Shown here: one piece after another, positions 44,725-64,000 of the stretch
Numbering within the stretch: position 1 is the stretch's first letter
Layout: each line of letters opens with the position of its first letter
Assembly: GCF_900636475.1 (NCBI RefSeq)
Contig: NZ_LR134283.1
Coordinates: forward strand, 248,001 to 312,000
Length of the DNA: 64,000 nt
From: Streptococcus anginosus
GTDB taxonomy: Bacteria > Bacillota > Bacilli > Lactobacillales > Streptococcaceae
Direction of reading: 5' to 3'
Made by a program: the position numbers and the translations under genes
Notes under the pieces: model-generated
Databases searched by the model: none
What the model saw: the letters and a program-made list of their open reading frames with translations, nothing else
Told to the model about the DNA's origin: nothing

Positions 44725-46368
<1,644 letters not shown>

Positions 46369-47783: not shown

Positions 47784-48268
47784 TGATAAATGAGGAAATT
47801 GCAAATAGAGTAGTAAATATCGAAATAAATGTTTTAAAAGTAACATATCAGGAGATATTAAATAATATCAATAAATTACATCAACGATCAAAACAATATG
47901 GAGGCTTAGGAAAATTAGTTAAGGCTGAAGGTAGTGAAGTAAAGCTCAAAGATATGGTAAAGAAAGGTCAGCTTGAAGAAATTCCTGTTGAAGAAGCAGA
48001 GCTTAAAGAACTGAAAAAAGAACTGAACCGATACGGCGTTAAGTTTTCAGTCATGAAAGATAAGGAAAGTGGGAAATACTCAGTATTCTTTCAAGCTAAA
48101 GATATGAAGGTTATGGATAAAGCATTTAAGCACGCCCTTTCAGAATCAGAAAAGAAAACGGAAAGAAAGGAGTCCATTCATAAGAATATTGAAAAATTCA
48201 AAGAGATGGCAAAGAACTCTGTTTCTAAGGATAAAGTCAAGAATAAACAAAAGGAGCAGAGCCTATGA
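47783..48268 (+). CDS. PcfB family (DUF3801) conjugation protein
   Basis: 161 residues, helical, charged. EEIANRVVNIEINVLKVTYQ at the start and GVKFSVMKDKESGKYSVFFQ in the middle are typical of PcfB/DUF3801 proteins, which lie just before the coupling protein gene in Gram-positive conjugation operons. ATG 47783 follows AGGAGG. Its stop overlaps the virD4 start (ATGA). Confidence 0.8.
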   Translation: MINEEIANRVVNIEINVLKVTYQEILNNINKLHQRSKQYGGLGKLVKAEGSEVKLKDMVKKGQLEEIPVEEAELKELKKELNRYGVKFSVMKDKESGKYSVFFQAKDMKVMDKAFKHALSESEKKTERKESIHKNIEKFKEMAKNSVSKDKVKNKQKEQSL

Positions 48269-48594
48269 TAGACAAGATATTAAAGGACATCAAAGGCTTA
48301 TTTAAGGTGCAGGATAAGGCGAAGTTTGTAAAACAAAATATTCCCTATCTTGCATTTTTCTATGCAGGTAATATCTTTTCACATCATGTAAGAAGCTATG
48401 TTGGAGGAGATGTGATAGATAAAATATTTCAAGGTATATTAGAGCTTAATACCATGAGCTTTTTCCCAAGTATTCATCTGGCGGATATTTTAATGGGCAT
48501 AGGAGTGGCTGCTTTAATCAAATTCATTGTCTATACTAAAGGCAAAAATGCTAAAAAGTTTAGACAGGGAAAAGAGTATGGATCAGCAAGATGG
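48265..48594 (+). pseudogene. virD4: virD4 coupling protein gene, piece 1 of 3 (N-terminal membrane part)
   Basis: 110 codons of the type IV coupling protein: two membrane helices (IPYLAFFYAGNIF and HLADILMGIGVAALIKFIVY) and KEYGSARW. After TGG 48592-48594 the frame enters mobile element 1 and stops within three codons at 48601-48603. The sequence resumes in frame at 55513. Broken as it stands, restorable if the elements leave. Confidence 0.9.
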
Positions 48595-48654
48595 GTTGCA
48601 TAATATTAACTGAACAGGAGTGGTATATAGACACGAGAAAAGGAGGATAATGCT

Positions 48655-50493
48655 ATGATAGAATATCACAATAAAATCACAGCACTATACTCCCGCCTTT
48701 CAGTTGGCGATGAAGATAGAGACGGTGGCGAGAGTAATAGTATTGTAAATCAAAAAGCCTTTTTAGAAAGGTATGCAAGAGAAAAAAAGCTGATAAACAT
48801 TCGCCACTATATCGACGATGACGAAAGCGGTAGGTTCTTTGACCGTTCAGCCTATACACAGATGATAAGCGATGTAGAGCAAGGCAAAATCGGAATTGTC
48901 ATCATGAAAGATATGACAAGATGGGGAAGAGATTATCTCCAAGTAGGAAATGCGATGGAGATATTTAGAAGAAACAATGTACGCTTTATCGCTATCAATA
49001 ACGGAATAGACAGCATTGACCAAAACACATTGGAATTTGCTCCCTTTATCAACATCATGTCAGAGTGGTATGCAAGAGACATCAGCAAGAAAGTAAAGAC
49101 AGGAATTAAGACCAAAGGAGCAGATGGAAAGCCTGTCGCAACAGAAGCCCCATACGGCTATATAAAAGACCCTGAGAACAAAGATTATTGGATAGCCGAT
49201 AAAGAAGCTGCCGAAGTTGTAAAACTCATTTTTAGGTTATTTATGGAGGGGAAAAATAGAAATCAGATAGCCGTTTATCTGAAAGAAAAAGAAATACTAA
49301 CCCCAACCTTTTATATGAAACAGCAAGACAGAGGAACAGCCAAAAGCAAACCCCTCAACGAAGAAAACAGATATAACTGGAACAAAGCAACCATAACACG
49401 CATACTGAAAAGACAAGAGTATTGTGGCGATGTAGTCAATTTTAAGACCGAAAAGCATTACAGGGATAAGAGAAACCATTATGTAGATAAAAGCAAATGG
49501 CAAATAACAGAAAATGTCCATGAGCCGATAATAGATAGAACTACCTTTGAAAATGTAGAGCGTATGTTAAAAAATGCACCTGTAAAAAGACCAAACGGAG
49601 ACGGAGAAATTCACGCACTATCAGGCTTGATGTACTGTAAAGATTGCGGAACAAAAATGCACATTCGCACCATACACAAAAACAAAAAAGTACAGCATGT
49701 AACCTATTGCAGTGAATATGCCAAAGGAAAAGCAAAGCACCCAAAATGTAACTCGCCACATCGTATTGATGTAGATGAAGTTATGGAAAATATTGCAGAA
49801 GTCTTACGAAAGATAGCACAATATTCCTTAGAAAATAAAGCAGAGTTTGAAAAACTTGTAAAAGAGAGTTTGTATAAAGAGCAGACGGAGGAAGTCAAGA
49901 AAAATCAAAAGCGTATGCCCCAAATCACAGACCGAATGGAACAGATAGAAAGAGTGATGAATAAGCTCTATGAAGATAATGCACTTGGAAATATGGATAC
50001 AGAACGCTATGAGCAGTTATCAAGAAAGTATGCAGAAGAATACTATACCTTAAAAGCAGAAAAAGAAGAAATCAAAGAACGCTTATCCGAATGTGAAAAT
50101 GCAAACCAAAGGGCAAAGAAATTTATCAGACTGGCAGAAAGCTATTCAAACTTTGAAGAACTTACCCCAACTATTATCAATGAGTTTATCAGTAAAATTG
50201 TTGTGCATGAAAGAGATGTAAAAAGAGCAAAATATGTTGTTCAGCGAATAGAGGTTTATTTTAACTATATCGGAAAATTTAAAAATGAACTTACAAAACA
50301 GATAGAGCCGACAGAACAGGAAATGCTACAGATGAGGGAAGAAATAGAAGAAGCAAAGAAAGAAAAAGCCAGAGCATATCGTAGGGCATATTACAAAGAA
50401 TACAGAGCCAAAAACCTTGAAAAGTGTCGAGAGTACGAGAAATTAAAAGCAAGAGAATACCGAGCAAAAAAGAAACTACAAAGAGCAACCTAA
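48655..50493 (+). CDS. Large serine recombinase of element 1 (TnpX-like)
   Basis: 612 residues. Resolvase domain (about 8-160) with the catalytic serine in ALYSRLSVGDED (Ser16) and the arginine motif KDMTRWGRDY, recombinase domain, a zinc ribbon (MYCKDCGTKM and later cysteines), coiled coil, and a very basic C-terminal tail (KARAYRRAYYKEYRAK). It should excise and insert the element at short GG-containing cores. AAAGGAGG sits before ATG 48655. Confidence 0.92.
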   Translation: MIEYHNKITALYSRLSVGDEDRDGGESNSIVNQKAFLERYAREKKLINIRHYIDDDESGRFFDRSAYTQMISDVEQGKIGIVIMKDMTRWGRDYLQVGNAMEIFRRNNVRFIAINNGIDSIDQNTLEFAPFINIMSEWYARDISKKVKTGIKTKGADGKPVATEAPYGYIKDPENKDYWIADKEAAEVVKLIFRLFMEGKNRNQIAVYLKEKEILTPTFYMKQQDRGTAKSKPLNEENRYNWNKATITRILKRQEYCGDVVNFKTEKHYRDKRNHYVDKSKWQITENVHEPIIDRTTFENVERMLKNAPVKRPNGDGEIHALSGLMYCKDCGTKMHIRTIHKNKKVQHVTYCSEYAKGKAKHPKCNSPHRIDVDEVMENIAEVLRKIAQYSLENKAEFEKLVKESLYKEQTEEVKKNQKRMPQITDRMEQIERVMNKLYEDNALGNMDTERYEQLSRKYAEEYYTLKAEKEEIKERLSECENANQRAKKFIRLAESYSNFEELTPTIINEFISKIVVHERDVKRAKYVVQRIEVYFNYIGKFKNELTKQIEPTEQEMLQMREEIEEAKKEKARAYRRAYYKEYRAKNLEKCREYEKLKAREYRAKKKLQRAT

Positions 50494-50516
50494 AACTAAA
50501 TATCAACCAATAACAA

Positions 50517-50549
50517 AAGATGTTTCCTAATCACAGGAAATCTTTTTTT
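50517..50549 (+). terminator. Terminator after recombinase 1
   Basis: AGATGTTTCCT / AGGAAATCT imperfect stem with T7 tail. Confidence 0.65.
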
Positions 50550-50573
50550 GTGCAAGTCGAAAGGAGGAACTAA

Positions 50574-50765
50574 ATGGCAGAAAATGAGAAAACAGATATT
50601 AAAGAAATACAGGCAGAACAACAAGCACTCCACCCAAAGCCTGACGGTATTCTAACAAAAAAGATAAATGGAAAGACCTTTGTAACAGAGATATATTTTG
50701 ATAAAAAGAGTAAAGAGACATTTCAAGATAAGCTGTTCAAAGTAATATATTCAAAGGGCAAATAG
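50574..50765 (+). CDS. TnpW-like transposon-encoded small protein
   Basis: 63 residues, charged; the core KINGKTFVTEIYFDKKSKETFQDKL (read as two halves) matches the transposon-encoded TnpW family linked to Tn4451-type elements. Role unknown, possibly helping the recombinase. Ribosome site AAAGGAGG. The equivalent gene of element 2 lies at the far right end (63055) rather than next to the recombinase. Confidence 0.7.
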   Translation: MAENEKTDIKEIQAEQQALHPKPDGILTKKINGKTFVTEIYFDKKSKETFQDKLFKVIYSKGK

Positions 50766-50861
50766 TAGTGAGTAGGGAAATCTGGCAGTAGAAAAAATGC
50801 CTAAAAAATGCTATAATATCAATAACTATTAAGAGAGAAATAACGAATTAAGGAGGTAACA

Positions 50862-51290
50862 ATGAACAAAATTACTTGTATTTGTTTAGGTGTTAAAGAT
50901 ATGGAAAAGTCAATCAAGTTTTATAGAGATGGTTTAGGATATAAGACTGATTGCAAAGAAAATAATCCGGCGGTATGTTTTTTTGATACTCCGGGAACAA
51001 AGTTCGAACTATTTCCTTTGGAACAATTAGCAAAAGACATTGATGAAAATAATCCGCCAAAAGGAAATGGATTTTTCGGAATTACATTAGCTTACAATGT
51101 TGAACATAAAGAAGATGTTAATAGTGTAATTGACTTAGTACGCAATATTGGTGGAACCATTGTAAAAGAACCGCAAGATACTTTTTGGGGTGGATATCAC
51201 GCATATTTTTCGGATTTAGATGGATATTATTGGGAAGTTGCATGGGGTCCAAATTTCAAGTTTGATGAAAATGGACTATTGAAATTTTAG
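50862..51290 (+). CDS. VOC family protein, copy 2
   Basis: 142 residues, same fold and length as the protein at 7157-7585, differing at 12 positions by hand count. Both start MNKITCICLGV and end FKF-x-NGLLKF. Glyoxalase/bleomycin-resistance fold, ligand unknown. AGGAGG precedes the ATG; a TATAAT -10 lies at 50812-50817. It is cargo of element 1. Confidence 0.85.
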   Translation: MNKITCICLGVKDMEKSIKFYRDGLGYKTDCKENNPAVCFFDTPGTKFELFPLEQLAKDIDENNPPKGNGFFGITLAYNVEHKEDVNSVIDLVRNIGGTIVKEPQDTFWGGYHAYFSDLDGYYWEVAWGPNFKFDENGLLKF

Positions 51291-51310
51291 TAATTAAGGG
51301 AGATAGAAAA

Positions 51311-51630
51311 ATGGCTTCAAGTAAAAATATTTAGATTTCATTTTAGAACAACTATCCGAGTTGGAAGAAATAACATATAGATTAATGATGGGCGAATATA
51401 TTGTTTATTATCGCGGAAAAATTGTTGGTGGAATTTATGATGATAGGTTTTTAGTGAAGCCTGTTAAATCTGCAATAGCATATATGCCAAATGCAAAGTA
51501 TGAGTTACCGTATGATGGAGCAAAGGAAATGCTATTGGTAGATGATGTTGACAACAAAGAATATTTAACAGGGTTATTCAATTCTATGTATAAAGAATTA
51601 CCGGCACTAAAAAGAAAAAATGAACGGTAA
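51311..51630 (+). pseudogene. TfoX-N-like gene with a one-base frameshift near its start
   Basis: ATG GCT TCA AGT AAA begins as in the relative at 7607, but an A-run (AAAAATAT against AAAGAATAT) has lost one base and the frame stops at 51332-51334. In the shifted frame the protein continues as YLDFILEQLSELEEITYRLM to the end at 51630. The part from TTG 51361 gives 89 residues if used. Could also be a sequencing error in the homopolymer. Follows the VOC gene as in the 7-kb island. Confidence 0.7.
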
Positions 51631-51685
51631 ATCAAAGCGGTATAATATTTTTCTGTATAGGCAACAAGTTTAAGGAGGAAAGATT

Positions 51686-52057
51686 ATGGATTATAAAGAA
51701 ATAAAGCTTAATGTTTCAAATAATAAAATTAAAGAATATAAGCAATTTGAGGGCTTAAAATTATATTCTGATATTTTTAAATCTGAAGATGAAAAGGTAT
51801 TGATTAACAAAAGAATATATGTTACAAAAAAACAGAATTATGTTTATTACGAAAGAACAGATGTAAATTGGAATTATTGGTCAAGCGAAAGAAATTATAA
51901 TTCAACATTTAATCCGGAGAATGATAGTAAACACAACATTATATTTGAAGTTTCATCAGAATTAAGCGATTTTATTAAATATTTGGGAGAAGAAATAATT
52001 CGGAAGATTGAATTGAAACAGCACAATGGAGAAATTGTTGAGATATTAGATATTTGA
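51686..52057 (+). CDS. EXLDI-family-like protein
   Basis: 123 residues, soluble, ending IVEILDI, which fits the C-terminal E-x-L-D-I motif after which the family is named. Other features are VYYERTDVNWNYWSSER and a central acidic stretch. Function unknown. AAGGAGG precedes the ATG. Cargo of element 1. Confidence 0.6.
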   Translation: MDYKEIKLNVSNNKIKEYKQFEGLKLYSDIFKSEDEKVLINKRIYVTKKQNYVYYERTDVNWNYWSSERNYNSTFNPENDSKHNIIFEVSSELSDFIKYLGEEIIRKIELKQHNGEIVEILDI

Positions 52058-52159
52058 TTGTGTTATGAAGAATGAAGCATTGACTGAAAATATAATATCT
52101 ACTCAAGCACGTAAAATTTCTATTTTTAGTAATATCAATTAAATAAAAAATAGTATAAA

Positions 52160-52192
52160 AACAGTAAATCAAAAAAGGTTTACTGTTTTTTT
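52160..52192 (+). terminator. Terminator hairpin, copy 1 of a repeated module marker
   Basis: AACAGTAAA / TTTACTGTT stem with loop TCAAAAAAGG and T run. The same hairpin recurs at 55409-55439 and 62995-63026. Confidence 0.85.
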
Positions 52193-52226
52193 ATTTGCTA
52201 AAAATAGAAAGAGAGGAAACGAGAAA

Positions 52227-52547
52227 ATGAAAAACATTGAAGAAAAAATCTTAATGGCAGATGAAGAAATCAAGCAGTTACAAAATAAAAGAAAAAAACT
52301 CATCAGTCAACAGAAACAGGAAGAAAGAAAAAAGAGAGATAAAAGGATATATGAAAAAGGAGCAGTCTTTGAAAGTATATTTATAGAAAGTAAAAATCTA
52401 ACCAAAGATGAATTTTATCAGTTGATTACATCTTTAATTCGTAAGGAAGAAGCAAATCTCAAAATACAAAAAATTATAGAAAGCAGAGAAGAAACAGAAG
52501 TAGAGAATGCAGAAAAAGAAGATGAAGAAACGGAGATAGAGGAATAG
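52227..52547 (+). CDS. DUF3847 small protein, mobilisation accessory (element 1)
   Basis: 106 residues, charged coiled coil at the start (ILMADEEIKQLQNKRKKLIS) and an acidic tail. DUF3847 proteins stand immediately before oriT and the MobA/MobL relaxase in Gram-positive mobilizable elements and may help build the relaxosome. Closely similar to the protein at 60034-60354. Confidence 0.75.
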   Translation: MKNIEEKILMADEEIKQLQNKRKKLISQQKQEERKKRDKRIYEKGAVFESIFIESKNLTKDEFYQLITSLIRKEEANLKIQKIIESREETEVENAEKEDEETEIEE

Positions 52548-52548
52548 T

Positions 52549-52728
52549 CCCTTGCTTACAAGGGCGCACTTATACACCCTAAAGGGTGCGTGCGTTCTCC
52601 GAAGGCTCTTGCAGAGGGCATATCAGCTAACGCTGATACAGGGGAACTACATTCCCCTACGGAAATAAATTTCCTACCCCTTGTGTACTTCCCAAAAGAA
52701 ATCGGATAAAAAGCTATCCGATTTTTTT
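52549..52728. other. Origin of transfer (oriT) and hairpin array of element 1
   Basis: On the minus strand TAAGTGCGCCCT (52572-52561) matches the MOBQ/IncQ nic core; the cut would fall between G and C of GCG-CCC. Just 5' of it on that strand is the inverted repeat CACCCT/AGGGTG (52575-52588) and just 3' CCCTTG/CAAGGG (52549-52564). Further hairpins follow at 52621-52638, 52641-52657 and 52661-52674, and a terminator AATCGGATA/TATCCGATT plus T run at 52700-52728. Confidence 0.75.
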
Positions 52729-52788
52729 AGGAAGTCTTATCTATCGCCACCATAACCATATCGAAAAACGGAAAGGAGGTTTTCTCTT

Positions 52789-54249
52789 ATGGCGATATAT
52801 CATCTTTGCATAAAGATTATTTCAAGAGGCAAAGGCAAAAGTGCAGTAGCAGCTTCCGCCTATCGTAGTGGCGAAAAGATAAAAAATGAGTATGATGGCG
52901 AGGTTCACGACTTTACAAGAAAAGGCGGAATAGCCCATACTGAAATTCTTTTACCGCAAAATGCACCACAGGAATTTTCAGATAGAGGGACATTGTGGAA
53001 CAGTGTTGAGAAAATAGAAAAAAGTAAAAACTCACAGCTTGCAAGAGAAATTGAAGTTGCCCTACCTAAAGAATTAGACCGAGAAAAACAAATAAATCTT
53101 GTAAGAGAATATGTAAAAGAAAATTTTGTAAAAGTCGGTATGTGTGCCGATATTGCCCTACACGATAAAAATGATGGAAACCCACATTGTCATATCCTAC
53201 TAACCATGCGACCACTAAATGAAGATACAACATGGGGAGCAAAATCAAAAAAGGAATATATCCTTGATGAAAACGGAGAAAAGGTAAAACTTAAAAATGG
53301 CAATTACAAAACAAGAAAGATAAATACAACAGATTGGAATGAGCAAGACAAAGCAGAAGAATGGCGAAAAGCATGGGCAGACATTACAAACAAATATCTT
53401 GAAGAAAACAGCATACAGGACAAAGTAGATCATCGTTCTTATCAAAGACAAGGCATAGAGCAAATACCGACTATTCATTTAGGAGTATCAGCAACCCAAA
53501 TGGAGAAGAAAGGCATAGTCACAGATAGAGGAAATATAAATAGAGAAATAAAACAACAAAATGCGATTTTAAGAGAAATTTCAAGAAGAATAAAAGCCTT
53601 GTTAAATTGGATAAGAGGAATAGGAAAAGAAGAAAAAGTAGAAAACGAAAATATAAAGTCCACCCTCCCACTCAAAGAAAATTTGCAATCAATCTTTGAA
53701 AATCTTATCCGTAAAAATACAGATAAGATTAATACAGACTTAGAGAAATATATTGAGAGTTATCAATTACTCAAAGAAAAAAACATTACAAGTATCAATC
53801 AATTAAAAGAGAGCATCACCGATTTACGAGATAAGAACTACAAGACCACAAGAGCCTTAAAAGATACCGAGAAAAAGATTGATGATAGAATACAACTCAT
53901 AGACCAATCAGAAAAATATTTGAAGAATAAAGACACCTACAAAGTCTATGCAAAATTAAAGAAAAGTAAACAGGAAGATTTTTATAACGAGCATACGGCT
54001 GAGCTTATTTTATTTGAAAGTACTAAGAAATATTTGAAAGACCATTTAGGAGAAAGTAAAACCTTAGCCATCAGTAAATGGAAAACAGAAGTTAGCACTT
54101 TGAAGAAAGAGAAAAAGAGCCTTTACAATCAAATATTAGAGATAAGAGAAGAAGTAGAACAAGCAGAAAAAGTTAAGACCTGTATAGAGCAGTTACAGGA
54201 ACAAAAAAGGCAACTATCACAGGTAAAGAGGAATGAGTTAGACCTATAA
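52789..54249 (+). CDS. MobA/MobL relaxase of element 1
   Basis: 486 residues. N-terminal relaxase domain: Tyr25 in AASAYRSGEK as the nicking tyrosine, metal histidines His125, His133 and His135 in HDKNDGNPHCH. The C-terminal half is a long coiled coil. It would nick oriT just upstream and lead the strand into a helper mating channel. AAAGGAGG precedes ATG 52789. Near-duplicate of the relaxase at 60596. Confidence 0.92.
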   Translation: MAIYHLCIKIISRGKGKSAVAASAYRSGEKIKNEYDGEVHDFTRKGGIAHTEILLPQNAPQEFSDRGTLWNSVEKIEKSKNSQLAREIEVALPKELDREKQINLVREYVKENFVKVGMCADIALHDKNDGNPHCHILLTMRPLNEDTTWGAKSKKEYILDENGEKVKLKNGNYKTRKINTTDWNEQDKAEEWRKAWADITNKYLEENSIQDKVDHRSYQRQGIEQIPTIHLGVSATQMEKKGIVTDRGNINREIKQQNAILREISRRIKALLNWIRGIGKEEKVENENIKSTLPLKENLQSIFENLIRKNTDKINTDLEKYIESYQLLKEKNITSINQLKESITDLRDKNYKTTRALKDTEKKIDDRIQLIDQSEKYLKNKDTYKVYAKLKKSKQEDFYNEHTAELILFESTKKYLKDHLGESKTLAISKWKTEVSTLKKEKKSLYNQILEIREEVEQAEKVKTCIEQLQEQKRQLSQVKRNELDL

Positions 54250-54310
54250 AATCAATCGGAAAAATGGTATAATTATAAATAGTTATTTGATTTTGGAGGA
54301 GCTTAAATTT

Positions 54311-54730
54311 ATGAATGAAAGAGAGAAAATCATTCGTTTATGGTTTGACATGTGGCTTACACAACAAGACTTAGGGATAGATGAAATTTTTTCTGATGAT
54401 GTAATTTATATTGAGAGTTGGTGTCCTAAGTATGAAAACCGTCAAACAGTAAAGCACTGGTTTAACGAGTGGAATACAAGAGGAATAGTGCTTGCGTGGG
54501 ATATAAAGCAATTTTTTCATAAGGATAATCAAACTATTGTAGAATGGCACTTCAAAAATAAAATGAATGAGGGGAAAGTTGAAGAATTTGACGGTATTTC
54601 TTTGATTGTTTGGACAGTCGATAATAAGATAAAAGCATTAAAAGAGTTTGGCTGTAATTGCAATAACTACAATCCTTATAAAGAGAGTGAAACACCCTTA
54701 TTTAGAGATGAAAAAGCAAATTGGTTTTGA
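54311..54730 (+). CDS. SnoaL-like (NTF2-fold) protein
   Basis: 139 residues with NTF2/SnoaL-type pattern: WFDMWLTQQDLGIDEIFSDD, a middle VKHWFNEW and a C-terminal IVWTVDNKIKALKEFG. Could be a small isomerase or binding protein; no function assigned. ATG 54311 after TTGGAGGAGC; extended -10 TGG-TATAAT ends at 54273. Cargo of element 1. Confidence 0.65.
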   Translation: MNEREKIIRLWFDMWLTQQDLGIDEIFSDDVIYIESWCPKYENRQTVKHWFNEWNTRGIVLAWDIKQFFHKDNQTIVEWHFKNKMNEGKVEEFDGISLIVWTVDNKIKALKEFGCNCNNYNPYKESETPLFRDEKANWF

Positions 54731-54742
54731 GGAGATAAAATA

Positions 54743-55360
54743 TTGATAGAAAGTAGACCTGAGTTTGATAAAATTACATCGTTTGATGAATTTAGTAAAT
54801 ACTATTGGTATCGTGAAGAACTTTCACAGATATGCAAGTCATTAGGATTAGAATATAGAGGTATAAAACAAGAACTCAATTATATTATTGAGCAGTACTT
54901 TAAGGGCAATTTGATTAAAAAATCATCAATAAAAAATGAAAAGAAACAAGTAGAAACTATTACCTTAGATACGCCATTACTTGAATGTGGGTTCTCCTTT
55001 AACACACAATTTAGAGAATATTTTTCAATTTTAACAGATGTTTCACCATTTAAATTTACTGCTGATATGGCTACTGCTTGGAGAAAAATAAAAAGAGAAA
55101 ATGATTTGAGTTTTACAATTCAAGATATGCTGAAAGTTTATTATGGAAAATCGGATTATGCCAAGTATGATAATTCGGTTTGTCAATGGAATCAATTTTT
55201 AAAGGATTTCTGTGCAGATGAAAATAGTTGCAACTATTCAAATAAATTAAAAGTAGCTTCCATTCTTTGGAAAGAAGTAAGAAATTCAAGAAATGAAAAA
55301 ATTTATTCAAAGAATCTTTTGACTGAATATGCTCATAAAATAAAAGAGTATTGCAAGTAG
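54743..55360 (+). CDS. SAP-domain-containing protein
   Basis: 205 residues from TTG 54743, which follows GAGGAG by a proper gap. The N-terminal FDEFSKYYWYREELSQICKS then LGLEYRGIKQELNYIIEQYF is a SAP-like helix-extended loop-helix, a putative nucleic-acid-binding fold. The rest (TADMATAWRKIKRENDLSFT) is not recognised. Next to the SnoaL-like gene and probably co-transcribed. Confidence 0.6.
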   Translation: MIESRPEFDKITSFDEFSKYYWYREELSQICKSLGLEYRGIKQELNYIIEQYFKGNLIKKSSIKNEKKQVETITLDTPLLECGFSFNTQFREYFSILTDVSPFKFTADMATAWRKIKRENDLSFTIQDMLKVYYGKSDYAKYDNSVCQWNQFLKDFCADENSCNYSNKLKVASILWKEVRNSRNEKIYSKNLLTEYAHKIKEYCK

Positions 55361-55408
55361 GATATTTTCAGCTTGATAAACTAACAATTTAATAAAAACT
55401 AACACATG

Positions 55409-55439
55409 AACAGTAAATCAAAAAAGGTTTACTGTTTTT
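55409..55439 (+). terminator. Terminator hairpin, copy 2
   Basis: AACAGTAAA / TTTACTGTT stem near the right end of element 1, preceded by CTAACAATTTAATAAAAACT, a sequence also preceding copy 3. Confidence 0.85.
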
Positions 55440-55512
55440 CTCTGCCCAAAAGAAAAAAGCCTTATAGAAAAAGCATCCATATATATAAAAAGGTATTTGA
55501 CAAAACGCTTCC

Positions 55513-55743: not shown

Positions 55744-55795
55744 TTAACCTCTTAGGGACAGAGAAAATAAAAAACTTGGAAAGGAGGTAATTCTC

Positions 55796-57451: not shown

Positions 57452-57492
57452 TGTATATAATTTTTATGGAAGTAATCATTTGAGATATACTT

Positions 57493-57526
57493 AAAACTTG
57501 CGATTTTGCAAGTTTTTTGTTATAAT
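57493..57526 (+). promoter_or_regulatory. Promoter with overlapping inverted repeat before the restriction-modification genes
   Basis: -35 TTGCGA (57498-57503), 17-bp spacer, -10 TATAAT (57521-57526). A perfect 9-bp inverted repeat AAAACTTGC / GCAAGTTTT (57493-57516) covers the -35 and is followed by Ts, so it may act as recombinase terminator, as an operator of the HTH protein, or both. Confidence 0.65.
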
Positions 57527-57548
57527 AAATTATATTTGGAGGTATAAA

Positions 57549-57761
57549 ATGAATGTATCTTATCAACCGCTTTGGAAGATTTTAGAAGATAAAAAAATGA
57601 AGAAAAAAGACTTGATTGAGATAGCAAACATTTCAGAGAATTGTGTTGCTAATATGGGTAACAATAAATATGTTTCAATGGCGAATATTAGCCGTATATG
57701 CGAAGCTTTAGAATGTACCCCCAATGATGTATTTCAGTTCTGTGCAAGTGATAAAAGATAA
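57549..57761 (+). CDS. Small HTH (Cro/CI-like) regulator
   Basis: 70 residues: WKILEDKKMKKKDLIEIANI, then SMANISRICEALECTPNDVF, a single Xre-type helix-turn-helix. Placed directly before the methyltransferase gene with a 13-bp gap, it may act as a controller protein for the restriction-modification genes, though it also resembles generic plasmid regulators. GGAGG before the ATG. Confidence 0.8.
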   Translation: MNVSYQPLWKILEDKKMKKKDLIEIANISENCVANMGNNKYVSMANISRICEALECTPNDVFQFCASDKR

Positions 57762-57774
57762 GGAGGATAGGACT

Positions 57775-58629
57775 ATGACTAAAAATTCAAGAAAAAAGAA
57801 TATTGTTCTTTCTCCTGTAGTAAAGTGGGTTGGTGGCAAAAGACAATTATTGAGTGATATAGTTCCGCTTATTCCAAAGACATTTTCTACTTATGTTGAG
57901 CCTTTTGTAGGTGGAGGAGCGGTCATATTTGATATTCAGCCTAAAAAGGCAATTATAAATGATTTTAATAGTGAGCTTATAAATATTTATAAAGTAATTA
58001 AAGAGAAACCTAATGAATTAATTTTAGCTTTAGAAAATCATGAGCGACTTAATTCAGAGGAATATTTTTATGAAGTTAGGGCATTAGACAGAAATGAAAA
58101 ATATGGGGAAATAAATGACATTGAGAAAGCTGCAAGAATTATTTATTTGAACAAAACGTGTTACAATGGTTTATTTAGAGTAAATCAAGCAGGTCAATTT
58201 AATTCTCCTTATGGTAAATACAAAAATCCTAATATAGTTAATATGCCCGTTGTATTAGCTATGTCGAAGTATTTTAATGAAAACAATATAAAGATAATGA
58301 ATGGAGATTATAAAAACTCCTTAAAAAATTTAAGGAAAGGTGCATTTGTATATTTTGATCCACCATACATGCCGATTTCATCCTCATCTTCTTTTACAGG
58401 TTATACAGAAAATGGATTTGATACGAAACAACAAATTGAACTTAAAGAAGAGTGCGATAAATTAAACTCTAAAGGAGTAAAATTTTTATTATCAAATTCA
58501 GATCACCCTTTCATTAGAGAATTGTATAAAGATTATGAAATTATTACTGTAAAAGCAAAGCGTTCAATAAATAGTAATGGTAATAAACGTGGAGAAATAA
58601 ATGAAGTATTAGTAAGGAATTATGATTAA
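57775..58629 (+). CDS. DNA adenine-N6 methyltransferase (D12 class)
   Basis: 284 residues. SAM-binding KWVGGKRQLL and VEPFVGGGAV at the N-terminus, catalytic DPPY at 195-198 (YFDPPYMPISS), and KTCYNGLFRVN, order typical of Dam/DpnII-like alpha-class enzymes. Protects host DNA against the linked endonuclease. Recognition sequence unknown; GATC is common in the class but not shown. ATG 57775 after AAGGAGG. Overlaps the endonuclease gene by 8 bp. Confidence 0.88.
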   Translation: MTKNSRKKNIVLSPVVKWVGGKRQLLSDIVPLIPKTFSTYVEPFVGGGAVIFDIQPKKAIINDFNSELINIYKVIKEKPNELILALENHERLNSEEYFYEVRALDRNEKYGEINDIEKAARIIYLNKTCYNGLFRVNQAGQFNSPYGKYKNPNIVNMPVVLAMSKYFNENNIKIMNGDYKNSLKNLRKGAFVYFDPPYMPISSSSSFTGYTENGFDTKQQIELKEECDKLNSKGVKFLLSNSDHPFIRELYKDYEIITVKAKRSINSNGNKRGEINEVLVRNYD

Positions 58630-59926
58630 AATGAATGTGAATGAAGCTTGGAGTAAACTTTTTGAAAAATATGATATTCTCAATAAAATTCAGAGCGAGG
58701 GTGCGTTTTTCATTACTGCCAATCAAATAAAAGAATTTAAGGAACCACGATTAATGGCGAAGTGGGACAGTTCTGAAAATTTGCCCAGTATTTTCAAAAA
58801 GCACAATATTAATATTTTGCCAATTAGTAGAAACGGATATGTTTTAAGTGATTTTAAGTTGTATGAACCAATTCCTGAATTAGGGGAACATATAACAGAA
58901 ATGCAAAAAGTTGAAATTCCAGAATATGAAACTATTGATATTGGTAATATATCATCGGAGGCGAATGCGATTAATGTTTTAATGCTTTCAAAAATATTAG
59001 ATGATTTTTTAGATGAAGATGATAATGTTGCCACATTTAATGGAAGAATGGGAACAGGAATTTTCAGTTTTCGTGTAGATAGACATAGAGGGAGTCCTTT
59101 TAAAGTTGACGTAAAAAATGCACAATGTGAAATTGATGGAGGAATGGAAAATAATAATTCCGTTGTTATTTTAGAAGCAAAAAATGTTGTTCATCCGGAT
59201 TTTCACATCAGACAGCTTTATTATCCGTATAGATTGTGGGCAAGTAAAGTTGTCAAGCCTATTAGACTCGTTTTTTCTATTTATTCAAATCAGATATATA
59301 GACTATTTGAATATGTGTTTGAAGATAAAGACAACTATTCATCAATAAGATTAGTTAAATCTAAAAATTATTCTTTACAAGATACAGACATTGCTTTAAA
59401 TGAACTTTATGATGTGTATTCGGATGTAAAAGTTATTTATGATGATAATCAAAATAATACTAATATTCCTTTTATACAGGCTAATTCTTTTGAAAGAATT
59501 ATATCACTAATGGAGATTTTATTTGAAGAAAATAAAACCACAGAAGAAATTGCTGAAACTATGGAATTTGATTTAAGACAGTCAGATTATTATTACAATG
59601 CTGGTAAGTATCTTGGATTGTTTGAAAAGAAAGATGTTGAAGACGAAGAAAAGATAGTAAAAAAAGTTTCATTATCCAAATTAGGAAAAGATACAGTAAA
59701 ACTTAGATATAAAGAACGCCAATTAAAATTGGTCAGTTTGATTTTAGAACATGAAATATTTAATAGGCTATTTATAAAAGTTTATAATAGTGGAGAGTTA
59801 CCTACAAAAGAAGAAATTCAAAATATTATGAGAGAAAATAATGTGTGTAATGAGGGGCAGATAGTTAGACGTTCCAGTTCAGTTTATTCATGGCTTAAAT
59901 GGATATTTAATTTACAAAACATATAA
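58622..59926 (+). CDS. Probable type II restriction endonuclease (PD-(D/E)XK-like)
   Basis: 434 residues, no strong named match to me. A candidate nuclease motif is Asp172 in CEIDGG, followed by Glu185-Ala-Lys187 in VVILEAKNVV, the PD-(D/E)XK spacing. Position, overlapping the adenine methyltransferase and co-directional, supports a cognate endonuclease. The C-terminal part (TTEEIAETMEFDLRQSDYYY, YNAGKYLGLF) resembles a winged-helix domain seen in some restriction enzymes. Low GC, AT-rich codon use similar to the methyltransferase. Confidence 0.7.
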   Translation: MIKMNVNEAWSKLFEKYDILNKIQSEGAFFITANQIKEFKEPRLMAKWDSSENLPSIFKKHNINILPISRNGYVLSDFKLYEPIPELGEHITEMQKVEIPEYETIDIGNISSEANAINVLMLSKILDDFLDEDDNVATFNGRMGTGIFSFRVDRHRGSPFKVDVKNAQCEIDGGMENNNSVVILEAKNVVHPDFHIRQLYYPYRLWASKVVKPIRLVFSIYSNQIYRLFEYVFEDKDNYSSIRLVKSKNYSLQDTDIALNELYDVYSDVKVIYDDNQNNTNIPFIQANSFERIISLMEILFEENKTTEEIAETMEFDLRQSDYYYNAGKYLGLFEKKDVEDEEKIVKKVSLSKLGKDTVKLRYKERQLKLVSLILEHEIFNRLFIKVYNSGELPTKEEIQNIMRENNVCNEGQIVRRSSSVYSWLKWIFNLQNI

Positions 59927-59972
59927 AACCTAAAAGCATATTTTTATGTAGTACAGACAGAAGTTTATTGTT

Positions 59973-60000
59973 GAGATAGCAGAAATGTTATCTCTTTTTT
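59973..60000 (+). terminator. Terminator after the restriction gene
   Basis: GAGATA / TATCTC stem with a 10-nt loop and T6. Confidence 0.7.
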
Positions 60001-60033
60001 GTTGCTCATAATTAAAAAGAAAGGACAAAGAAA

Positions 60034-60354
60034 ATGAAAAATATAGATGAAAAAATTTTAATGGCAGAAGAAGAAATCAAGCAGTTACAAAACAAAAGAA
60101 AAAAGCTCATTAGTCAGCAGAAACAGGAAGAGAGAAAAAAGAGAGATAGACGGCTTTATGAAAAAGGAGCAGTATTTGAAAGTATCTTTACCGAAAGCAA
60201 GAACTTAACCAAAGATGAATTTTATCAGCTCATTACATTTCCAAATATCAAAGAAGCAGTCAATCAAAAAATCAGAAAAATCATAGAGAAAAGAGAACAA
60301 ACGGAAGAAGAAAACATAGAAAATCAAGAGGAAGAAATGAACACAGAGGAATAG
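60034..60354 (+). CDS. DUF3847 small protein, mobilisation accessory (element 2)
   Basis: 106 residues, nearly the same as 52227-52547 except the acidic tail and a variable block around NIKEAVNQKI. Coiled coil at the start (EEIKQLQNKRKKLISQQKQ). Precedes oriT 2 and the relaxase. Confidence 0.75.
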   Translation: MKNIDEKILMAEEEIKQLQNKRKKLISQQKQEERKKRDRRLYEKGAVFESIFTESKNLTKDEFYQLITFPNIKEAVNQKIRKIIEKREQTEEENIENQEEEMNTEE

Positions 60355-60355
60355 T

Positions 60356-60535
60356 CCCTTGTTTACAAGGGCGCACTTATACACCCTAAAGGGTGTGTGC
60401 GTTCTCCGAAGGCTCTTGCAGAGAGCATATCAGCTAAAGCTGATACAGGGGAGCTACACTCCCCTACGGAAATAAATTTCCTACCCCTTGTGTACTTCCC
60501 AAAAGAAATCGGATAAAAAGTTATCCGATTTTTTT
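60356..60535. other. Origin of transfer (oriT) and hairpin array of element 2
   Basis: Minus-strand TAAGTGCGCCCT at 60379-60368, flanked by the same hairpins as in element 1 (CCCTTG/CAAGGG at 60356-60371, CACCCT/AGGGTG, TATCAGC/GCTGATA, AGGGGA/TCCCCT), ending in the terminator AATCGGATA/TATCCGATT at 60507-60535. Confidence 0.75.
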
Positions 60536-60595
60536 AGAAAGTCTTATCTATCGCCACTATAACCATATCGAAAAATGGAAAGGAGGTTTTTGACT

Positions 60596-62056
60596 ATGGC
60601 GATATATCATCTTTGCATAAAGATTATCTCAAGAGGTAAAGGCAAAAGTGTAGTAGCAGCTTCCGCCTATCGAAGTGGCGAAAAGATAAAAAACGAGTAT
60701 GACGGCATAGTCCATGACTTTACAAGAAAAGGAGGAATAGCCCATACAGAAATCCTATTGCCACAAAATGCACCACAGGCATTTTTAGACAGGGGAACAT
60801 TATGGAATAGCGTAGAGAAAATAGAAAAGAGTAAAAACTCACAGCTTGCAAGAGAAATCGAAATTGCTTTACCTAAAGAACTAAATCGAGAAAAACAGAT
60901 TGAACTTGTTAGGGAGTATGTAAAAGATAATTTTGTAAATGTTGGTATGTGTGCCGACATTGCCTTACACGATAAAAATGATGGAAACCCACACGCACAT
61001 ATCCTACTAACAATGCGACCGTTAAATGAAGATACAACATGGGGAGCAAAATCAAAAAAGGAATATATCCTTGATGAAAACGGAGAAAAAGTAAAACTTA
61101 AAAACGGCAATTACAAAACAAGAAAGATAAATACAACGGACTGGAACGAGCAAGAAAAGGCTGAGCAGTGGAGGAAAGCATGGGCAGGTATTACAAACAA
61201 ATATCTTGAAGGAAACAGCATACAGGAAAAAGTAGACCATCGTTCCTATCAAAGACAGGGCATAGAGCAAATACCGACCATTCATTTAGGAGTATCAGCA
61301 ACTCAAATGGAGAAGAAAGGTATTGTTACAGACAGAGGAAATATCAATCGGGAAATCAGATATCAGAACAAAATATTAAGAGAAATCTCAAGAAGAATAA
61401 AAGCCTTATTAAATTGGATAAGGGGAATTGGAAAAGAAGAAAAAGCAGAAACGGAAAACATAAAATCTACCTTCCCACCAAAAGAAAACCTATTATCTGT
61501 TTTTGAAAATCTTATCCGTAACAATGCAGATAACTATAATGCAGACTTAGAAAAATATATTGAGAGTTATCAGCTACTTAAAGAGAAAAACATCACTTCA
61601 TTATCGGAGTTAAAAGGAAATATACTTGCTTTAAGGGATAAGAACTACAAGACTACAAGAGCCTTAAAAGATGTTGAAAAGAAAGTGGATGATAACACCA
61701 AACTTATCGAACAAGCAGAGAAGTATTTGAAGCATAAAGACATCTACAAAGCCTATACAAAATTGAAGAAAAGCAAACAGGAAGATTTTTACAACGAACA
61801 TGTCGCAGAGCTTATTTTGTTTGAGAGTGCTAAGAAATATCTGAAAGAGCATTTAGGAGAAAACAAGACCTTAACAATCAGTAAATGGAAATCAGAACTT
61901 ATCACTTTGAAGAAAGAGAAAAAGAGCCTATACAATCAAATATTAGAAATACGAGAAGAAGTTGAACAAGCTGAAAAAGTTAAGAACTGTATAGAGCAGT
62001 TACAGGTACAAGAAAAACAACTATCACAGGTAAAGCGGAATGAGTTAGACCTATAA
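60596..62056 (+). CDS. MobA/MobL relaxase of element 2
   Basis: 486 residues, aligned end to end with the relaxase of element 1. Tyr25 in AASAYRSGEK, histidines in HDKNDGNPHAH (the cysteine between them replaced by alanine), same coiled-coil C-terminus ending LSQVKRNELDL. ATG 60596 follows AAAGGAGG; the open frame from 60575 starts before that site. Confidence 0.92.
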   Translation: MAIYHLCIKIISRGKGKSVVAASAYRSGEKIKNEYDGIVHDFTRKGGIAHTEILLPQNAPQAFLDRGTLWNSVEKIEKSKNSQLAREIEIALPKELNREKQIELVREYVKDNFVNVGMCADIALHDKNDGNPHAHILLTMRPLNEDTTWGAKSKKEYILDENGEKVKLKNGNYKTRKINTTDWNEQEKAEQWRKAWAGITNKYLEGNSIQEKVDHRSYQRQGIEQIPTIHLGVSATQMEKKGIVTDRGNINREIRYQNKILREISRRIKALLNWIRGIGKEEKAETENIKSTFPPKENLLSVFENLIRNNADNYNADLEKYIESYQLLKEKNITSLSELKGNILALRDKNYKTTRALKDVEKKVDDNTKLIEQAEKYLKHKDIYKAYTKLKKSKQEDFYNEHVAELILFESAKKYLKEHLGENKTLTISKWKSELITLKKEKKSLYNQILEIREEVEQAEKVKNCIEQLQVQEKQLSQVKRNELDL

Positions 62057-62127
62057 AACTAAGTGAAAAAAGTATATAATATTAACTAGTGAAGACAAAA
62101 AATAAAATTTGAAGGAGGCGTTTACAT

Positions 62128-62946
62128 TTGGGGAAAATAGAAATGCAAGAGAAAATAAAACCTGTTTTGAACGGCACTGCAGAAACTATGCTTCAAAGTT
62201 TTTATGCACGTGCAGAGTATTCACAGAGAAAGAAGCATAAATTCTATGATGCAAAAGCAGTAGAACTTGTAAATAAGATTGATTATGACTTTTCAACTGC
62301 AGCAAAAGATCGTACCATGAGTAGTGGTGTAATCGCACGCACACTCGTCTTTGACGAACTGGTCAAAGAATTTATTGGGCGAAACCCGACTGCTACAATA
62401 GTGAACATTGCCTGTGGACTGGACACAAGATTTTATCGTGTGGATAATGGTACTATCACTTGGTATAATCTGGATCTGCCTGATGTTATAAATCTCAGAG
62501 ATCAGATTTTTTTAGAAAGCGGGAGAGTTTCATCTATCAGTGCGTCTGCTTTAGATCCAAATTGGTTCAAGGAAGTAAAAAACAGAGAGAATGTACTTTT
62601 TATTATAGAAGGACTGTCCATGTATCTCACTGCTGAAGAAAATGCCAAGATACTTTCTATCATTCATAAAAACTTTGACACCGCTACGGTCATAATGGAA
62701 TGTATTGCAAAGATGTGGGTAAAACGAGAAGGGGTTGAAAAATCCATTCAGCAAACCGGAGCCAGATTCGTTTTCGGTGCAGACAGCTTTGATGATATAA
62801 AGAATATTGCTCAGGGGTTTCATAAGATTAAAGATGACAACATATTACGTGGTATGCGTGTTCTTATGCCTACATTAAAGCTAATCGACTGGCTTCCGAT
62901 TGCGAGGAAGATCACGCAGAAGATTCTTGTTTTTAGTAAAGATTAA
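62128..62946 (+). CDS. Class I SAM-dependent methyltransferase, LCMT-like
   Basis: 272 residues. SAM-binding VNIACGLDTRFYRV, FIIEGLSMYLTAEE, and NLDLPDVINLR are typical of the PPM1/leucine carboxyl methyltransferase-like family. Substrate unknown; in mobile elements such genes may act on small molecules or antibiotics, which is speculation. Start TTG 62128 is well placed after GGAGG (62114-62118); ATG 62143 is an alternative. TATAAT at 62085-62090. Base use is less AT-rich than its neighbours, suggesting separate acquisition. Confidence 0.8.
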   Translation: MGKIEMQEKIKPVLNGTAETMLQSFYARAEYSQRKKHKFYDAKAVELVNKIDYDFSTAAKDRTMSSGVIARTLVFDELVKEFIGRNPTATIVNIACGLDTRFYRVDNGTITWYNLDLPDVINLRDQIFLESGRVSSISASALDPNWFKEVKNRENVLFIIEGLSMYLTAEENAKILSIIHKNFDTATVIMECIAKMWVKREGVEKSIQQTGARFVFGADSFDDIKNIAQGFHKIKDDNILRGMRVLMPTLKLIDWLPIARKITQKILVFSKD

Positions 62947-62994
62947 AGCAAACCACAGTTCGCATAACTAACAATTTAATAAAAACTAACACAG

Positions 62995-63026
62995 AACAGT
63001 AAATCATAAAAGGTTTACTGTTTTTT
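62995..63026 (+). terminator. Terminator hairpin, copy 3
   Basis: AACAGTAAA / TTTACTGTT stem with T run, preceded by the same CTAACAATTTAATAAAAACT as copy 2. Confidence 0.85.
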
Positions 63027-63054
63027 CTTTGTCTAAAATCGGAAAGGAGGACTT

Positions 63055-63219
63055 ATGAAAGAAGAAAAAAGAGAAATACAAGCATCACCCAATAAACAGT
63101 TAATAATGGATATTGGAAAGACAAAATATACTGTAAACCTACATTTCAAACAAGGTACAGGAGAAACATACAAGGATAAAATACTGAAGTTAATCAAGAG
63201 AGAAACAGAAAAGATATAA
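63055..63219 (+). CDS. TnpW-like transposon-encoded small protein (element 2)
   Basis: 54 residues, beginning MKEEKREIQASPNK with IGKTKYTVNLHFKQGTGETY in the middle; same pattern (IN/IGK-T-x5-FxxxSGETxxDKI) as the TnpW-like protein of element 1. GGAAAGGAGG before the ATG. Last gene before the right end of element 2. Too short for most gene finders. Confidence 0.65.
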   Translation: MKEEKREIQASPNKQLIMDIGKTKYTVNLHFKQGTGETYKDKILKLIKRETEKI

Positions 63220-63263
63220 ATTTGTCAAAGAAATTTTGTTTATGTCCTTGACAAATCTTCACA

Positions 63264-64000
63264 AAAGGAACGATAGTCCTTGAGTGTGGTAAGATGCTTG
63301 AGGATAACGGATATGAGATAAAAATCTTAAATACCATCAACTTCAAAAAAAGTATGAAATACAATCCATTTGCCTATATTCGTTCTGAGAAAGATATTCT
63401 GAAATTGGTACAGACAATCATTACAAATACGAAAGGAGAGGGAGAAAAAGCAGGTGAGGACTTTTGGGTCAAAGCCGAAAAACTCTACTATACAGCTCTT
63501 ATTGGTTACATTTGGTATGAAGCTCCAAGAGAAGAAAAGAATTTTGCAACACTCCTTGATATGATAGATGCTTCAGAAGTCAGAGAAGATGATGAAACCT
63601 ATATGAATCCGATAGACAGACTCTTTGAGGCACTGGAAAAGAAAGAGCCTACACACTTTGCAGTGAAGCAATATAAAAAGTACAAATTGGCTGCGGGAAA
63701 AACAGCAAAGTCTATTTTAATTTCTTGCGGTGCAAGGCTTGCTTCCTTTGACATTCAGGAACTACGGGACTTGATGAAAGAAGATGAACTGGAGCTTGAT
63801 ACACTTGGAGATAGAAAGACAGCACTCTTTGTTATTATCTCCGATACAGATGATACCTTTAACTTTGTTGTATCTATTATGTACTCACAATTATTTAACC
63901 TACTTTGTGATAAAGCAGATGATGTGTATGGCGGACGATTACCTGTCCATGTGAGATGTTTGCTTGATGAGTTTGCGAACATCGGCTTAATTCCAAAATT
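63264..64000 (+). pseudogene. virD4: virD4 coupling protein gene, piece 3 of 3 (Walker B part), continues beyond window
   Basis: Open frame KGTIVLECGKMLEDNGYEIK to the right edge with no stop: KSMKYNPFAYIRSEKDIL, AGEDFWVKAEKLYYTALIGY, and the Walker B region RCLLDEFANIGLIPK at 63955-64000. This is the conserved ATPase body of VirD4/TraG-type coupling proteins. It has no start of its own, so it cannot be made unless element 2 leaves or another start is used. Confidence 0.9.

What the first reader, a model, noticed from the sequence alone, without database searches (positions are those of the whole stretch)
48265..64000. One conjugation coupling-protein gene split into three by two different mobilizable elements
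virD4 is present as pieces at 48265-48594, 55513-55743 and 63264-64000. Each piece ends exactly where the next begins in the protein (GSARW | GTKKDIEP and TDPKG | TIVLECG). Both gaps are filled by complete elements with their own serine recombinase, oriT and relaxase. Two independent relaxase-bearing elements lodged in the same gene of the ICE suggests virD4 is a preferred docking site, and each insertion disables the host ICE's own transfer while the parasites keep their mobility machinery.
Basis: partly seen in the sequence, partly recalled or inferred. Interest (0 to 1): 0.9.

Follow-up and report, generated by a model that had tools for sequence, protein, structure and literature searches.

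The report
Coupling-protein gene hosting two mobile parasites
Two small hitch-hiking DNA elements sit at exact spots inside the gene that a larger transferable element needs to move its DNA between bacteria; this kind of arrangement was already known, but relatives show a third such spot in the same gene, and in some genomes all three are filled.

Summary
A virD4 gene of an ICE beside rlmD, in a genome inferred to be Streptococcus, is cut into three pieces by two elements, each with a large serine recombinase, a MobA/MobL relaxase and an exact nic-like motif. Compared piece by piece, the parts tile exactly in 74 of 80 relatives. No second copy of this gene family was found in the genome.

The kind is known: two mobilizable elements in one traG/virD4 are on record in C. 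difficile R20291 and S. constellatus C1050, with the excision-reactivation idea.

Not seen in the passages I read: a third docking site (codon 329) with its own recombinase; three genes holding all three elements; 50 of 126 virD4 rows occupied in one family of 130 genomes; one recombinase clade per site; no relaxed constraint in the occupied copies tested. Sites 2 and 3 are filled together more often than expected, uncorrected for kinship.

Loss of transfer, and excision restoring the gene, are inferred, not shown. Verdict: new member of a known kind, within a wider pattern worth testing.

The parts
44737..46368 (+). rlmD/rumA-type rRNA methyltransferase gene at the left side of the ICE
   Evidence: PF05958, PF01938
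46713..48268 (+). ICE genes just before virD4 (DUF6017 gene, DUF3801 gene)
   Evidence: PF19481, PF12687
48265..48594 (+). virD4 piece A, residues 1-110
   Evidence: translation and tiling
48592..48595 (.). left copy of the 4-nt core TGGG at site 1; right copy 55513-55516
   Evidence: sequence, empty sites in relatives
48596..55512 (+). element 1 (mobilizable element at site 1)
   Evidence: junctions
48655..50493 (+). recombinase 1, large serine recombinase, 612 aa
   Evidence: PF00239, PF07508, PF13408, PF14287
50574..50765 (+). TnpW-like gene
   Evidence: PF14202
50862..51290 (+). VOC (glyoxalase) superfamily gene; weak Ble-like_N match (25.7 bits, cut-off 24.5), below every NCBIfam cut-off
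52561..52572 (-). nic-like motif TAAGTGCGCCCT of element 1
   Evidence: exact match; motif identity recalled
52789..54249 (+). MobQ relaxase of element 1
   Evidence: PF03389, NF041496 283.9 bits, cut-off 200
54287..55360 (+). SnoaL-like gene and SAP-domain gene
   Evidence: PF12680, PF18953
55497..55502 (+). TTGACA near the right end of element 1
   Evidence: sequence, joint scoring
55513..55743 (+). virD4 piece B, residues 110-186
   Evidence: PF02534; tiling
55744..63263 (+). element 2 (mobilizable element at site 2); core AAAGGA at 55738-55743 and 63264-63269
   Evidence: junctions
55796..57451 (+). recombinase 2, large serine recombinase, 551 aa
57724..59926 (+). type II restriction-modification pair: Dam-family methyltransferase and DUF6996/6997/7226 protein
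60368..60379 (-). nic-like motif TAAGTGCGCCCT of element 2
   Evidence: exact match
60575..62056 (+). MobA/MobL relaxase of element 2
   Evidence: PF03389
62128..62946 (+). LCM-type methyltransferase gene
   Evidence: PF04072
63248..63253 (+). TTGACA near the right end of element 2
   Evidence: sequence
63264..64000 (+). virD4 piece C, from residue 185; goes on past the window
   Evidence: NF045973 CD1115 family, 314.8 bits, cut-off 250; tiling
63696..63698 (+). empty third docking position (after codon 329 of the intact reference gene)
   Evidence: sequence and occupied relatives

Best explanation
Two integrative mobilizable elements (IMEs) of the serine-recombinase/MobQ kind are docked by their own recombinases at two fixed attachment sites inside the virD4 gene of an ICE. 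SHOWN: exact tiling of the gene pieces; recurrence at the same codons in other genera; one recombinase clade per site; a third site used by a third clade. INFERRED: while docked, the IMEs break the coupling protein, so the ICE cannot transfer itself; among the scanned genes the IMEs have a relaxase but no coupling protein or mating pore, so they depend on a conjugative element; excision by each recombinase should leave an unscarred virD4 and so free the IME circle and re-arm the ICE together; the IME then travels and re-docks in an ICE of the recipient. For element 1 the circle joint would create a near-consensus promoter in front of its recombinase gene.
For: Tiling in 74 of 80 relatives. Both sites also filled in S. 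massiliensis and, by junctions, in Peptoniphilus faecalis. In one family of 130 genomes: recombinase 1 at site 1 in 14 of 15 loci, 2 at site 2 in 17 of 21, 3 at site 3 in 41 of 47. Three genes with all three elements. One clade per site on a 42-row tree. In 10 of 11 loci, recombinases 96-98% identical to the window's sit in genes whose first 110 residues are only 49-60% identical to the reference, so the insertions are separate events. Occupied copies show no relaxed constraint (pN/pS 0.022 against 0.036). Element 1 joint TTGACA-N17-CATAAT in 3 of 3 examined.
Against: No excision was observed here, and none can be with these tools; an SNF2-docked IME did not excise in a published test (PMC7168690, passages). 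Some elements lie elsewhere: four of 21 recombinase-2 loci in that family are not at site 2, and G092 outside it is not either; six of 47 recombinase-3 loci were not paired with virD4 and not examined. Element 2 has no convincing joint promoter. Low pN/pS also fits recent insertion. Some occupied genes are damaged: stops in G800:C5 and G795:C44, an apparent frame break in G695:C35. Multiple occupancy needs several excisions before the gene is whole.
Confidence: 0.8

Rival explanations
1. Dead-end docking: the insertion is site-specific but in practice kills the ICE; the IMEs later move with other conjugative elements of the cell. Further insertions into a dead gene cost nothing, which would also explain multiple occupancy.
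For: Sites 2 and 3 are filled together more than expected (p = 7e-4). 17 of 39 occupied genomes also keep an intact gene of the same family that could serve in trans. A published SNF2-docked IME did not excise. A few occupied copies are damaged.
Against: The tested stretch of the occupied genes shows no relaxed constraint, unless the insertions are recent. In the window genome no intact gene of this family exists.
Confidence: 0.4
2. Low-specificity insertion that happened to hit virD4 twice.
For: Some relatives of recombinase 2 lie outside virD4.
Against: Recombinase 3 starts exactly 531 bp from the start of piece C in 38 of 41 paired loci; the other two families also keep their codons.
Confidence: 0.02
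3. Assembly artefact caused by the repeated mobilization modules.
For: The modules are 81-94% alike, and one relative (G689:C14) has an odd hybrid order.
Against: The genome is one contig, and the same order recurs in S. massiliensis and, with a third element, in three other genomes.
Confidence: 0.02

Closest known systems
IME_Sco1050_traG_site1 and IME_Sco1050_traG_site2 of Streptococcus constellatus C1050 (table of PMC5704250; study PMC5357655)
   Same: Two serine-recombinase IMEs at two internal sites of one strain's traG (VirD4) gene of a Tn5252-superfamily ICE; the serine-integrase IMEs of that study mostly carry MobQ relaxases and no coupling protein; excision-reactivation hypothesis stated there
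   Different: I could not map their S1 and S2 on the sites used here (supplements not readable); no third site or triple occupancy in the passages read; streptococci only
Tn6104 and Tn6105 in ORF 1743 of Tn6103, Clostridioides difficile R20291 (PMC3158075, passages)
   Same: Two mobilizable transposons with TnpX-like serine recombinases in one gene of a conjugative transposon; circularisation of Tn6104 shown; that the target of Tn6104 is traG is from PMC5704250
   Different: Larger elements (about 15.6-15.8 kb) with other cargo; positions in the gene not compared here
IMEs in Tn1549_traG, SNF2 and PPI genes of Streptococcus suis ICEs (PMC7168690, passages)
   Same: Serine-recombinase IMEs docked in conserved genes of ICEs, the coupling-protein gene included
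   Different: Excision of the SNF2 and PPI IMEs was not detected; no use of several sites in one traG described in the passages read
Tn4451/Tn4453 of Clostridium (passages in PMC5704250 and PMC3158075)
   Same: Mobilizable element with a large serine recombinase and a relaxase
   Different: Low target specificity (numerous GA sites) and a MobV relaxase; here fixed sites and MobQ

Membership tests
Serine-recombinase IME with MobQ relaxase (IME class 5 of PMC5357655) | Large serine recombinase | tested here: met
   PF00239, PF07508, PF13408 in both recombinases
Serine-recombinase IME with MobQ relaxase (IME class 5 of PMC5357655) | MobQ (PF03389) relaxase | tested here: met
   PF03389 in both; NF041496 above cut-off for element 1, the only one scanned with it
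Serine-recombinase IME with MobQ relaxase (IME class 5 of PMC5357655) | No coupling protein or mating-pore gene of its own | tested here: met
   None among the scanned ORFs of either element; some short ORFs were not scanned
Serine-recombinase IME with MobQ relaxase (IME class 5 of PMC5357655) | Replisome organizer, DnaC-related or ParB-like maintenance gene | tested here: inconclusive
   No such Pfam match among the scanned ORFs; short ORFs not scanned
Serine-recombinase IME with MobQ relaxase (IME class 5 of PMC5357655) | oriT with nic site | tested here: met
   Exact nic-like motif before each relaxase gene; the motif is recalled, nicking untested
Serine-recombinase IME with MobQ relaxase (IME class 5 of PMC5357655) | Excision and mobilization | not testable with these tools
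   No reads or experiments at hand
traG/virD4-docked IME (PMC5357655) | Insertion inside a VirD4 gene with short direct repeats | tested here: met
   Cores TGGG and AAAGGA; empty sites in relatives
traG/virD4-docked IME (PMC5357655) | Integrase of family Ser_1 | not tested
   No reference sequences of Ser_1 were at hand
ICE with CD1115-family VirD4 (placed near Tn1549 by inference) | VirD4 of the CD1115 family | tested here: met
   NF045973 314.8 bits, cut-off 250, on piece C alone
ICE with CD1115-family VirD4 (placed near Tn1549 by inference) | MobP relaxase, VirB4-like ATPase, PrgI, TrbL/VirB6 | tested here: met
ICE with CD1115-family VirD4 (placed near Tn1549 by inference) | Delimited ends and known integrase specificity | not tested
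   Ends not delimited; a serine recombinase lies at L008:15730-17415

The most novel reading that the evidence does not exclude
virD4 of these ICEs is a three-slot docking hub: three recombinase clades each use one site in the same gene, up to three IMEs occupy it at once, and the interrupted gene stays under purifying selection because the IMEs act as reversible locks. The ICE can transfer only when every occupant has excised, and each occupant travels when the ICE does.
Probability: 0.3. Interest if true: 0.75.

Novelty: new member of a known kind. Interest (0 to 1): 0.5.

Why it matters
Mobilizable elements need a conjugative helper, yet these sit in a gene that the helper needs. If the insertion is reversible, the parasites decide when the helper can spread, a conjugation analogue of prophages that switch a host gene by excision. 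If it is not, they are a heavy brake on ICE transfer, since 50 of 126 virD4 rows in one family were occupied. Three recombinases with three sites in one gene would also be a clean experimental system.

Tried and rejected
Sites chosen because they are the most conserved DNA of virD4: rejected for sites 1 and 2 (55th and 60th percentile of 42-nt diversity windows), weak for site 3 (13th), on 23 dereplicated of 73 intact genes. Residues at the sites are mostly invariant, but so are many others.

A common GG or GA core for all elements: not supported for recombinase 2, whose insertion in G794 leaves only CCAAA shared.

A circle-joint promoter in every element: holds for element 1 (3 of 3 examined) and element 3 (1 of 1), not for element 2 (three mismatches, as in about 12% of random stretches at three or fewer) and doubtful for its 61% relative (two mismatches, spacing 19). 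TTGACA may simply be recombinase-binding sequence.

Association of sites 1 and 2: not significant (p = 0.19). Sites 1 and 3: p = 0.028 on 126 rows, 0.06 after dropping 8 rows. No test is corrected for kinship. The first count took one recombinase 2 (G689:C14) as site 2 of the wrong copy; corrected. The frame-based count takes G795:C44 as interrupted at site 2, although its short frame is due to a contig end.

The same-genus virD4 count (284 genomes) did not complete. The only genus-wide figure is the site-1 right-end pattern: 3 of 284, the own genome included. The families of G092 (13 genomes) added only G092 itself.
Full report
WHAT IS THERE. The window lies at 248001-312000 of a one-contig genome of 1,953,654 bases. 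Two genomes of its genus, G452 and G481, have contigs of the same length as the named records of Streptococcus anginosus J4206 and S. massiliensis DSM 18628, so the host is inferred to be a Streptococcus. To the right of rlmD (44737-46368) stands an ICE: DUF6017 and DUF3801 genes, virD4, TrbL/VirB6, PrgI, a VirB4-like ATPase, a CHAP-like peptidase, a topoisomerase, an AbiE pair, a large helicase/methylase-like protein, a SIR2-HerA pair, a MobP relaxase on the other strand and a serine recombinase. An ORF that I read, by eye, as a chromosomal sugar-phosphate mutase begins at genome position 347942. The ICE ends were not delimited.

THE SPLIT GENE. virD4 is present as A (48265-48594), B (55513-55743) and C (63264 to genome position 312493, beyond the window). 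As three separate queries against 80 relatives from named genomes, A, B and C lie next to each other with overlaps of exactly 3 and 6 nt in 74 of 80 loci. The overlaps belong to the cores shared by the element ends: TGGG for element 1, AAAGGA for element 2. Of the other six loci, L013, L016, L052, L060 and L077 carry insertions at these points and L078 begins too close to the gene. The 80 loci were the best of 577 by piece C, so genes broken inside C are under-represented there. No other copy of this virD4 family was found in the genome.

THE TWO ELEMENTS. Element 1 (48596-55512) has a 612-aa serine recombinase, a TnpW-like gene, a VOC gene, a weak TfoX_N match, DUF3847, a nic-like motif, a MobQ relaxase, SnoaL and SAP genes. 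Element 2 (55744-63263) has a 551-aa recombinase, an HTH gene, a type II restriction-modification pair, a DUF3847-like repeat of element 1, the same nic-like motif, a MobA/MobL relaxase and an LCM methyltransferase. The recombinases are about 38% identical (cross-comparisons), while the mobilization regions are repeats of 81-94% DNA identity at a constant offset of 7807 bases: one kind of mobilization module on two integration modules.

RECURRENCE. S. massiliensis carries both elements (recombinases 96.7% identical to the window's). Peptoniphilus faecalis has element 2 and the right end of element 1. Peptostreptococcus anaerobius has sites 2 and 3 filled in one gene. S. anginosus J4206 has site 1 filled in one ICE and an intact gene in another. 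Hespellia stercorisuis and Acetatifactor muris carry 72-73% relatives of recombinase 1 at site 1, and Acetatifactor 61% relatives of recombinase 2 at site 2, a few nt shifted. L094, a 46-47% relative of recombinase 2, stands behind piece B of a distant VirD4. In the own genus 3 of 284 genomes, own included, hold the site-1 right end.

A THIRD SITE AND A CENSUS. A recombinase 44-45% identical to recombinase 1 stands after codon 329 of virD4 in Peptostreptococcus anaerobius and Anaerococcus degeneri. The same site is empty in the window. In the 130 held genomes of the family of Peptoniphilus senegalensis (G693), recombinase 1 was found in 14 genomes (15 loci), recombinase 2 in 18 (21 loci), recombinase 3 in 37 (47 loci), and virD4 piece C in 76 (126 rows). 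Pairing by contig, strand and distance gave: none 76 rows, site 3 only 24, sites 2+3 9, site 1 only 5, sites 1+3 5, site 2 only 4, all three 3; so 50 of 126 rows are occupied. One of the nine (G689:C14) is a rearranged locus whose recombinase 2 belongs to another gene piece; one search corrects it. Eight further rows have a short or broken frame and no recombinase assigned. Mapping on the intact L018 gene confirmed all three elements in one gene in G713:C2, G804:C2 and G821:C13, the pieces ending at residues 110, 186 and 329. Recombinase 3 starts 531 bp from the start of piece C in 38 of 41 paired loci (530, 533 and 534 in the others).

SPECIFICITY. Recombinase 1 stands at site 1 in 14 of 15 loci: 13 with virD4 on both sides and G795:C29 with its right side only; the exception is a broken copy in G800:C5. 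Recombinase 2 stands at site 2 in 17 of 21: G765 and G689:C14 are seen on one side only; the exceptions are G794 (in a gene I read by eye as a radical-SAM enzyme), G802:C8, a broken second copy in G747 and a degenerate 63% relative in G731. Recombinase 3 is paired with virD4 in 41 of 47; the other six were not examined. Outside that family, G092 carries a 96% relative of recombinase 2 away from virD4.

SEPARATE INSERTIONS, ONE CLADE PER SITE. In 13 loci with piece A mapped, 11 have a recombinase 1 that is 96-98% identical to the window's; in 10 of these 11 the first 110 residues of virD4 are only 49-60% identical to the L018 reference, so the elements moved between long-diverged ICEs. On a maximum-likelihood tree of 42 rows (two loci dropped for want of an open frame) the site-1, site-2 and site-3 groups each need one change, 0 of 500 shuffles as low. 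Near-copies favour such a result, 17 rows without an assigned site, three of them recombinase-2 copies outside virD4, were not counted, and support for the site-2 branch is weak (73/100).

IS THE BROKEN GENE DECAYING? In the stretch between sites 2 and 3, 34 occupied copies against their nearest intact copy give pN/pS 0.022 (bootstrap 0.014-0.031); 101 intact copies give 0.036 (0.024-0.048). Limits: only copies without an indel in that stretch entered; G715 (frameshifted, no element) was dropped from the occupied set; four loci (L169, L171, L175, L176) that repeat occupied ones were left out of the intact set; one A. degeneri locus is in the occupied set twice (L016, G689C16); some genomes are in the intact set twice, though identical pairs were skipped. 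Against intactness: stops in G800:C5 and G795:C44, an apparent frame break in G695:C35. So most occupied copies are either young insertions or still used; this test cannot separate the two. 17 of 39 occupied genomes also keep an intact copy of the family.

CO-OCCUPANCY. Sites 2 and 3 are filled together more than expected (11 together, 4 site 2 only, 30 site 3 only, 81 neither; Fisher p = 7e-4); sites 1 and 3 weakly (p = 0.028); sites 1 and 2 not (p = 0.19). A frame-based reading of sites 1 and 2 gives 0.002, 0.01 and 0.70. Kinship is not corrected for. Free insertion into an already broken gene, or joint arrival, would both give this.

MECHANISM. Insertion at a fixed site by the element's own serine recombinase is as good as shown by position. 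That the docked state blocks ICE transfer, that excision restores virD4 and that the freed IME then uses that coupling protein are inferred. The circle joint of element 1 would give TTGACA-N17-CATAAT before its recombinase gene, also in two 72-73% relatives, and element 3 TTGACA-N18-TAGAAT; none of 20,000 random stretches scored as well; element 2 is unremarkable.

WHAT IS KNOWN. PMC3158075 (2011; passages) describes Tn6104 and Tn6105 in ORF 1743 of Tn6103, with circularisation of Tn6104 shown. PMC4701971 (2016; passages) lists traG as an ICE target. PMC5357655 (2017; passages and section 25) reports serine-integrase IMEs in traG, maff2 and snf2, different positions inside traG, and proposes excision on induction of conjugation. 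PMC5704250 (2017 review; passages) lists two traG sites in S. constellatus C1050 and traG as the target of Tn6104. PMC7168690 (2019; passages) reports IMEs in Tn1549_traG in S. suis and no detected excision of an SNF2 IME. PMC7563491 (2020; passages) was read for context. I found no report of a third virD4 site, or of three IMEs in one virD4, in searches; these cover open-licence full texts only, and supplements could not be read.

VERDICT. What seems new is the scale: a third slot, triple occupancy and high prevalence in one family.

Noticed in passing
L143/L144 (G689:C14) and L260 (G747:C1): Element with a recombinase-2 left half that is followed by virD4 from residue 107, as after element 1: looks like recombination between elements through the shared mobilization module.
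   Followed up: partly
window 57724-59926; L258 (G794:C1): The restriction-modification pair of element 2 recurs at 100% and 99.3% protein identity in G794, a genome of the Peptoniphilus family, where the element sits outside virD4: recent transfer between distant hosts.
   Followed up: partly
L007:14148-15798 and L008:7495-10347: The ICE carries an AbiEi/AbiEii pair and a SIR2-HerA pair, both matching PADLOC defence models.
   Followed up: no
G000:C1:7988-9232 and 86964-88208 (L001, L002): Two TraG genes with identical scores, 692 aa each, 79 kb apart, about 34% identical to piece C: another conjugative element, perhaps present twice.
   Followed up: no
L114 and L134: Recombinases about 40% identical to 1 and 2 lie just before a full-length TrbL/VirB6-like gene and form their own clade; their target was not established.
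   Followed up: no
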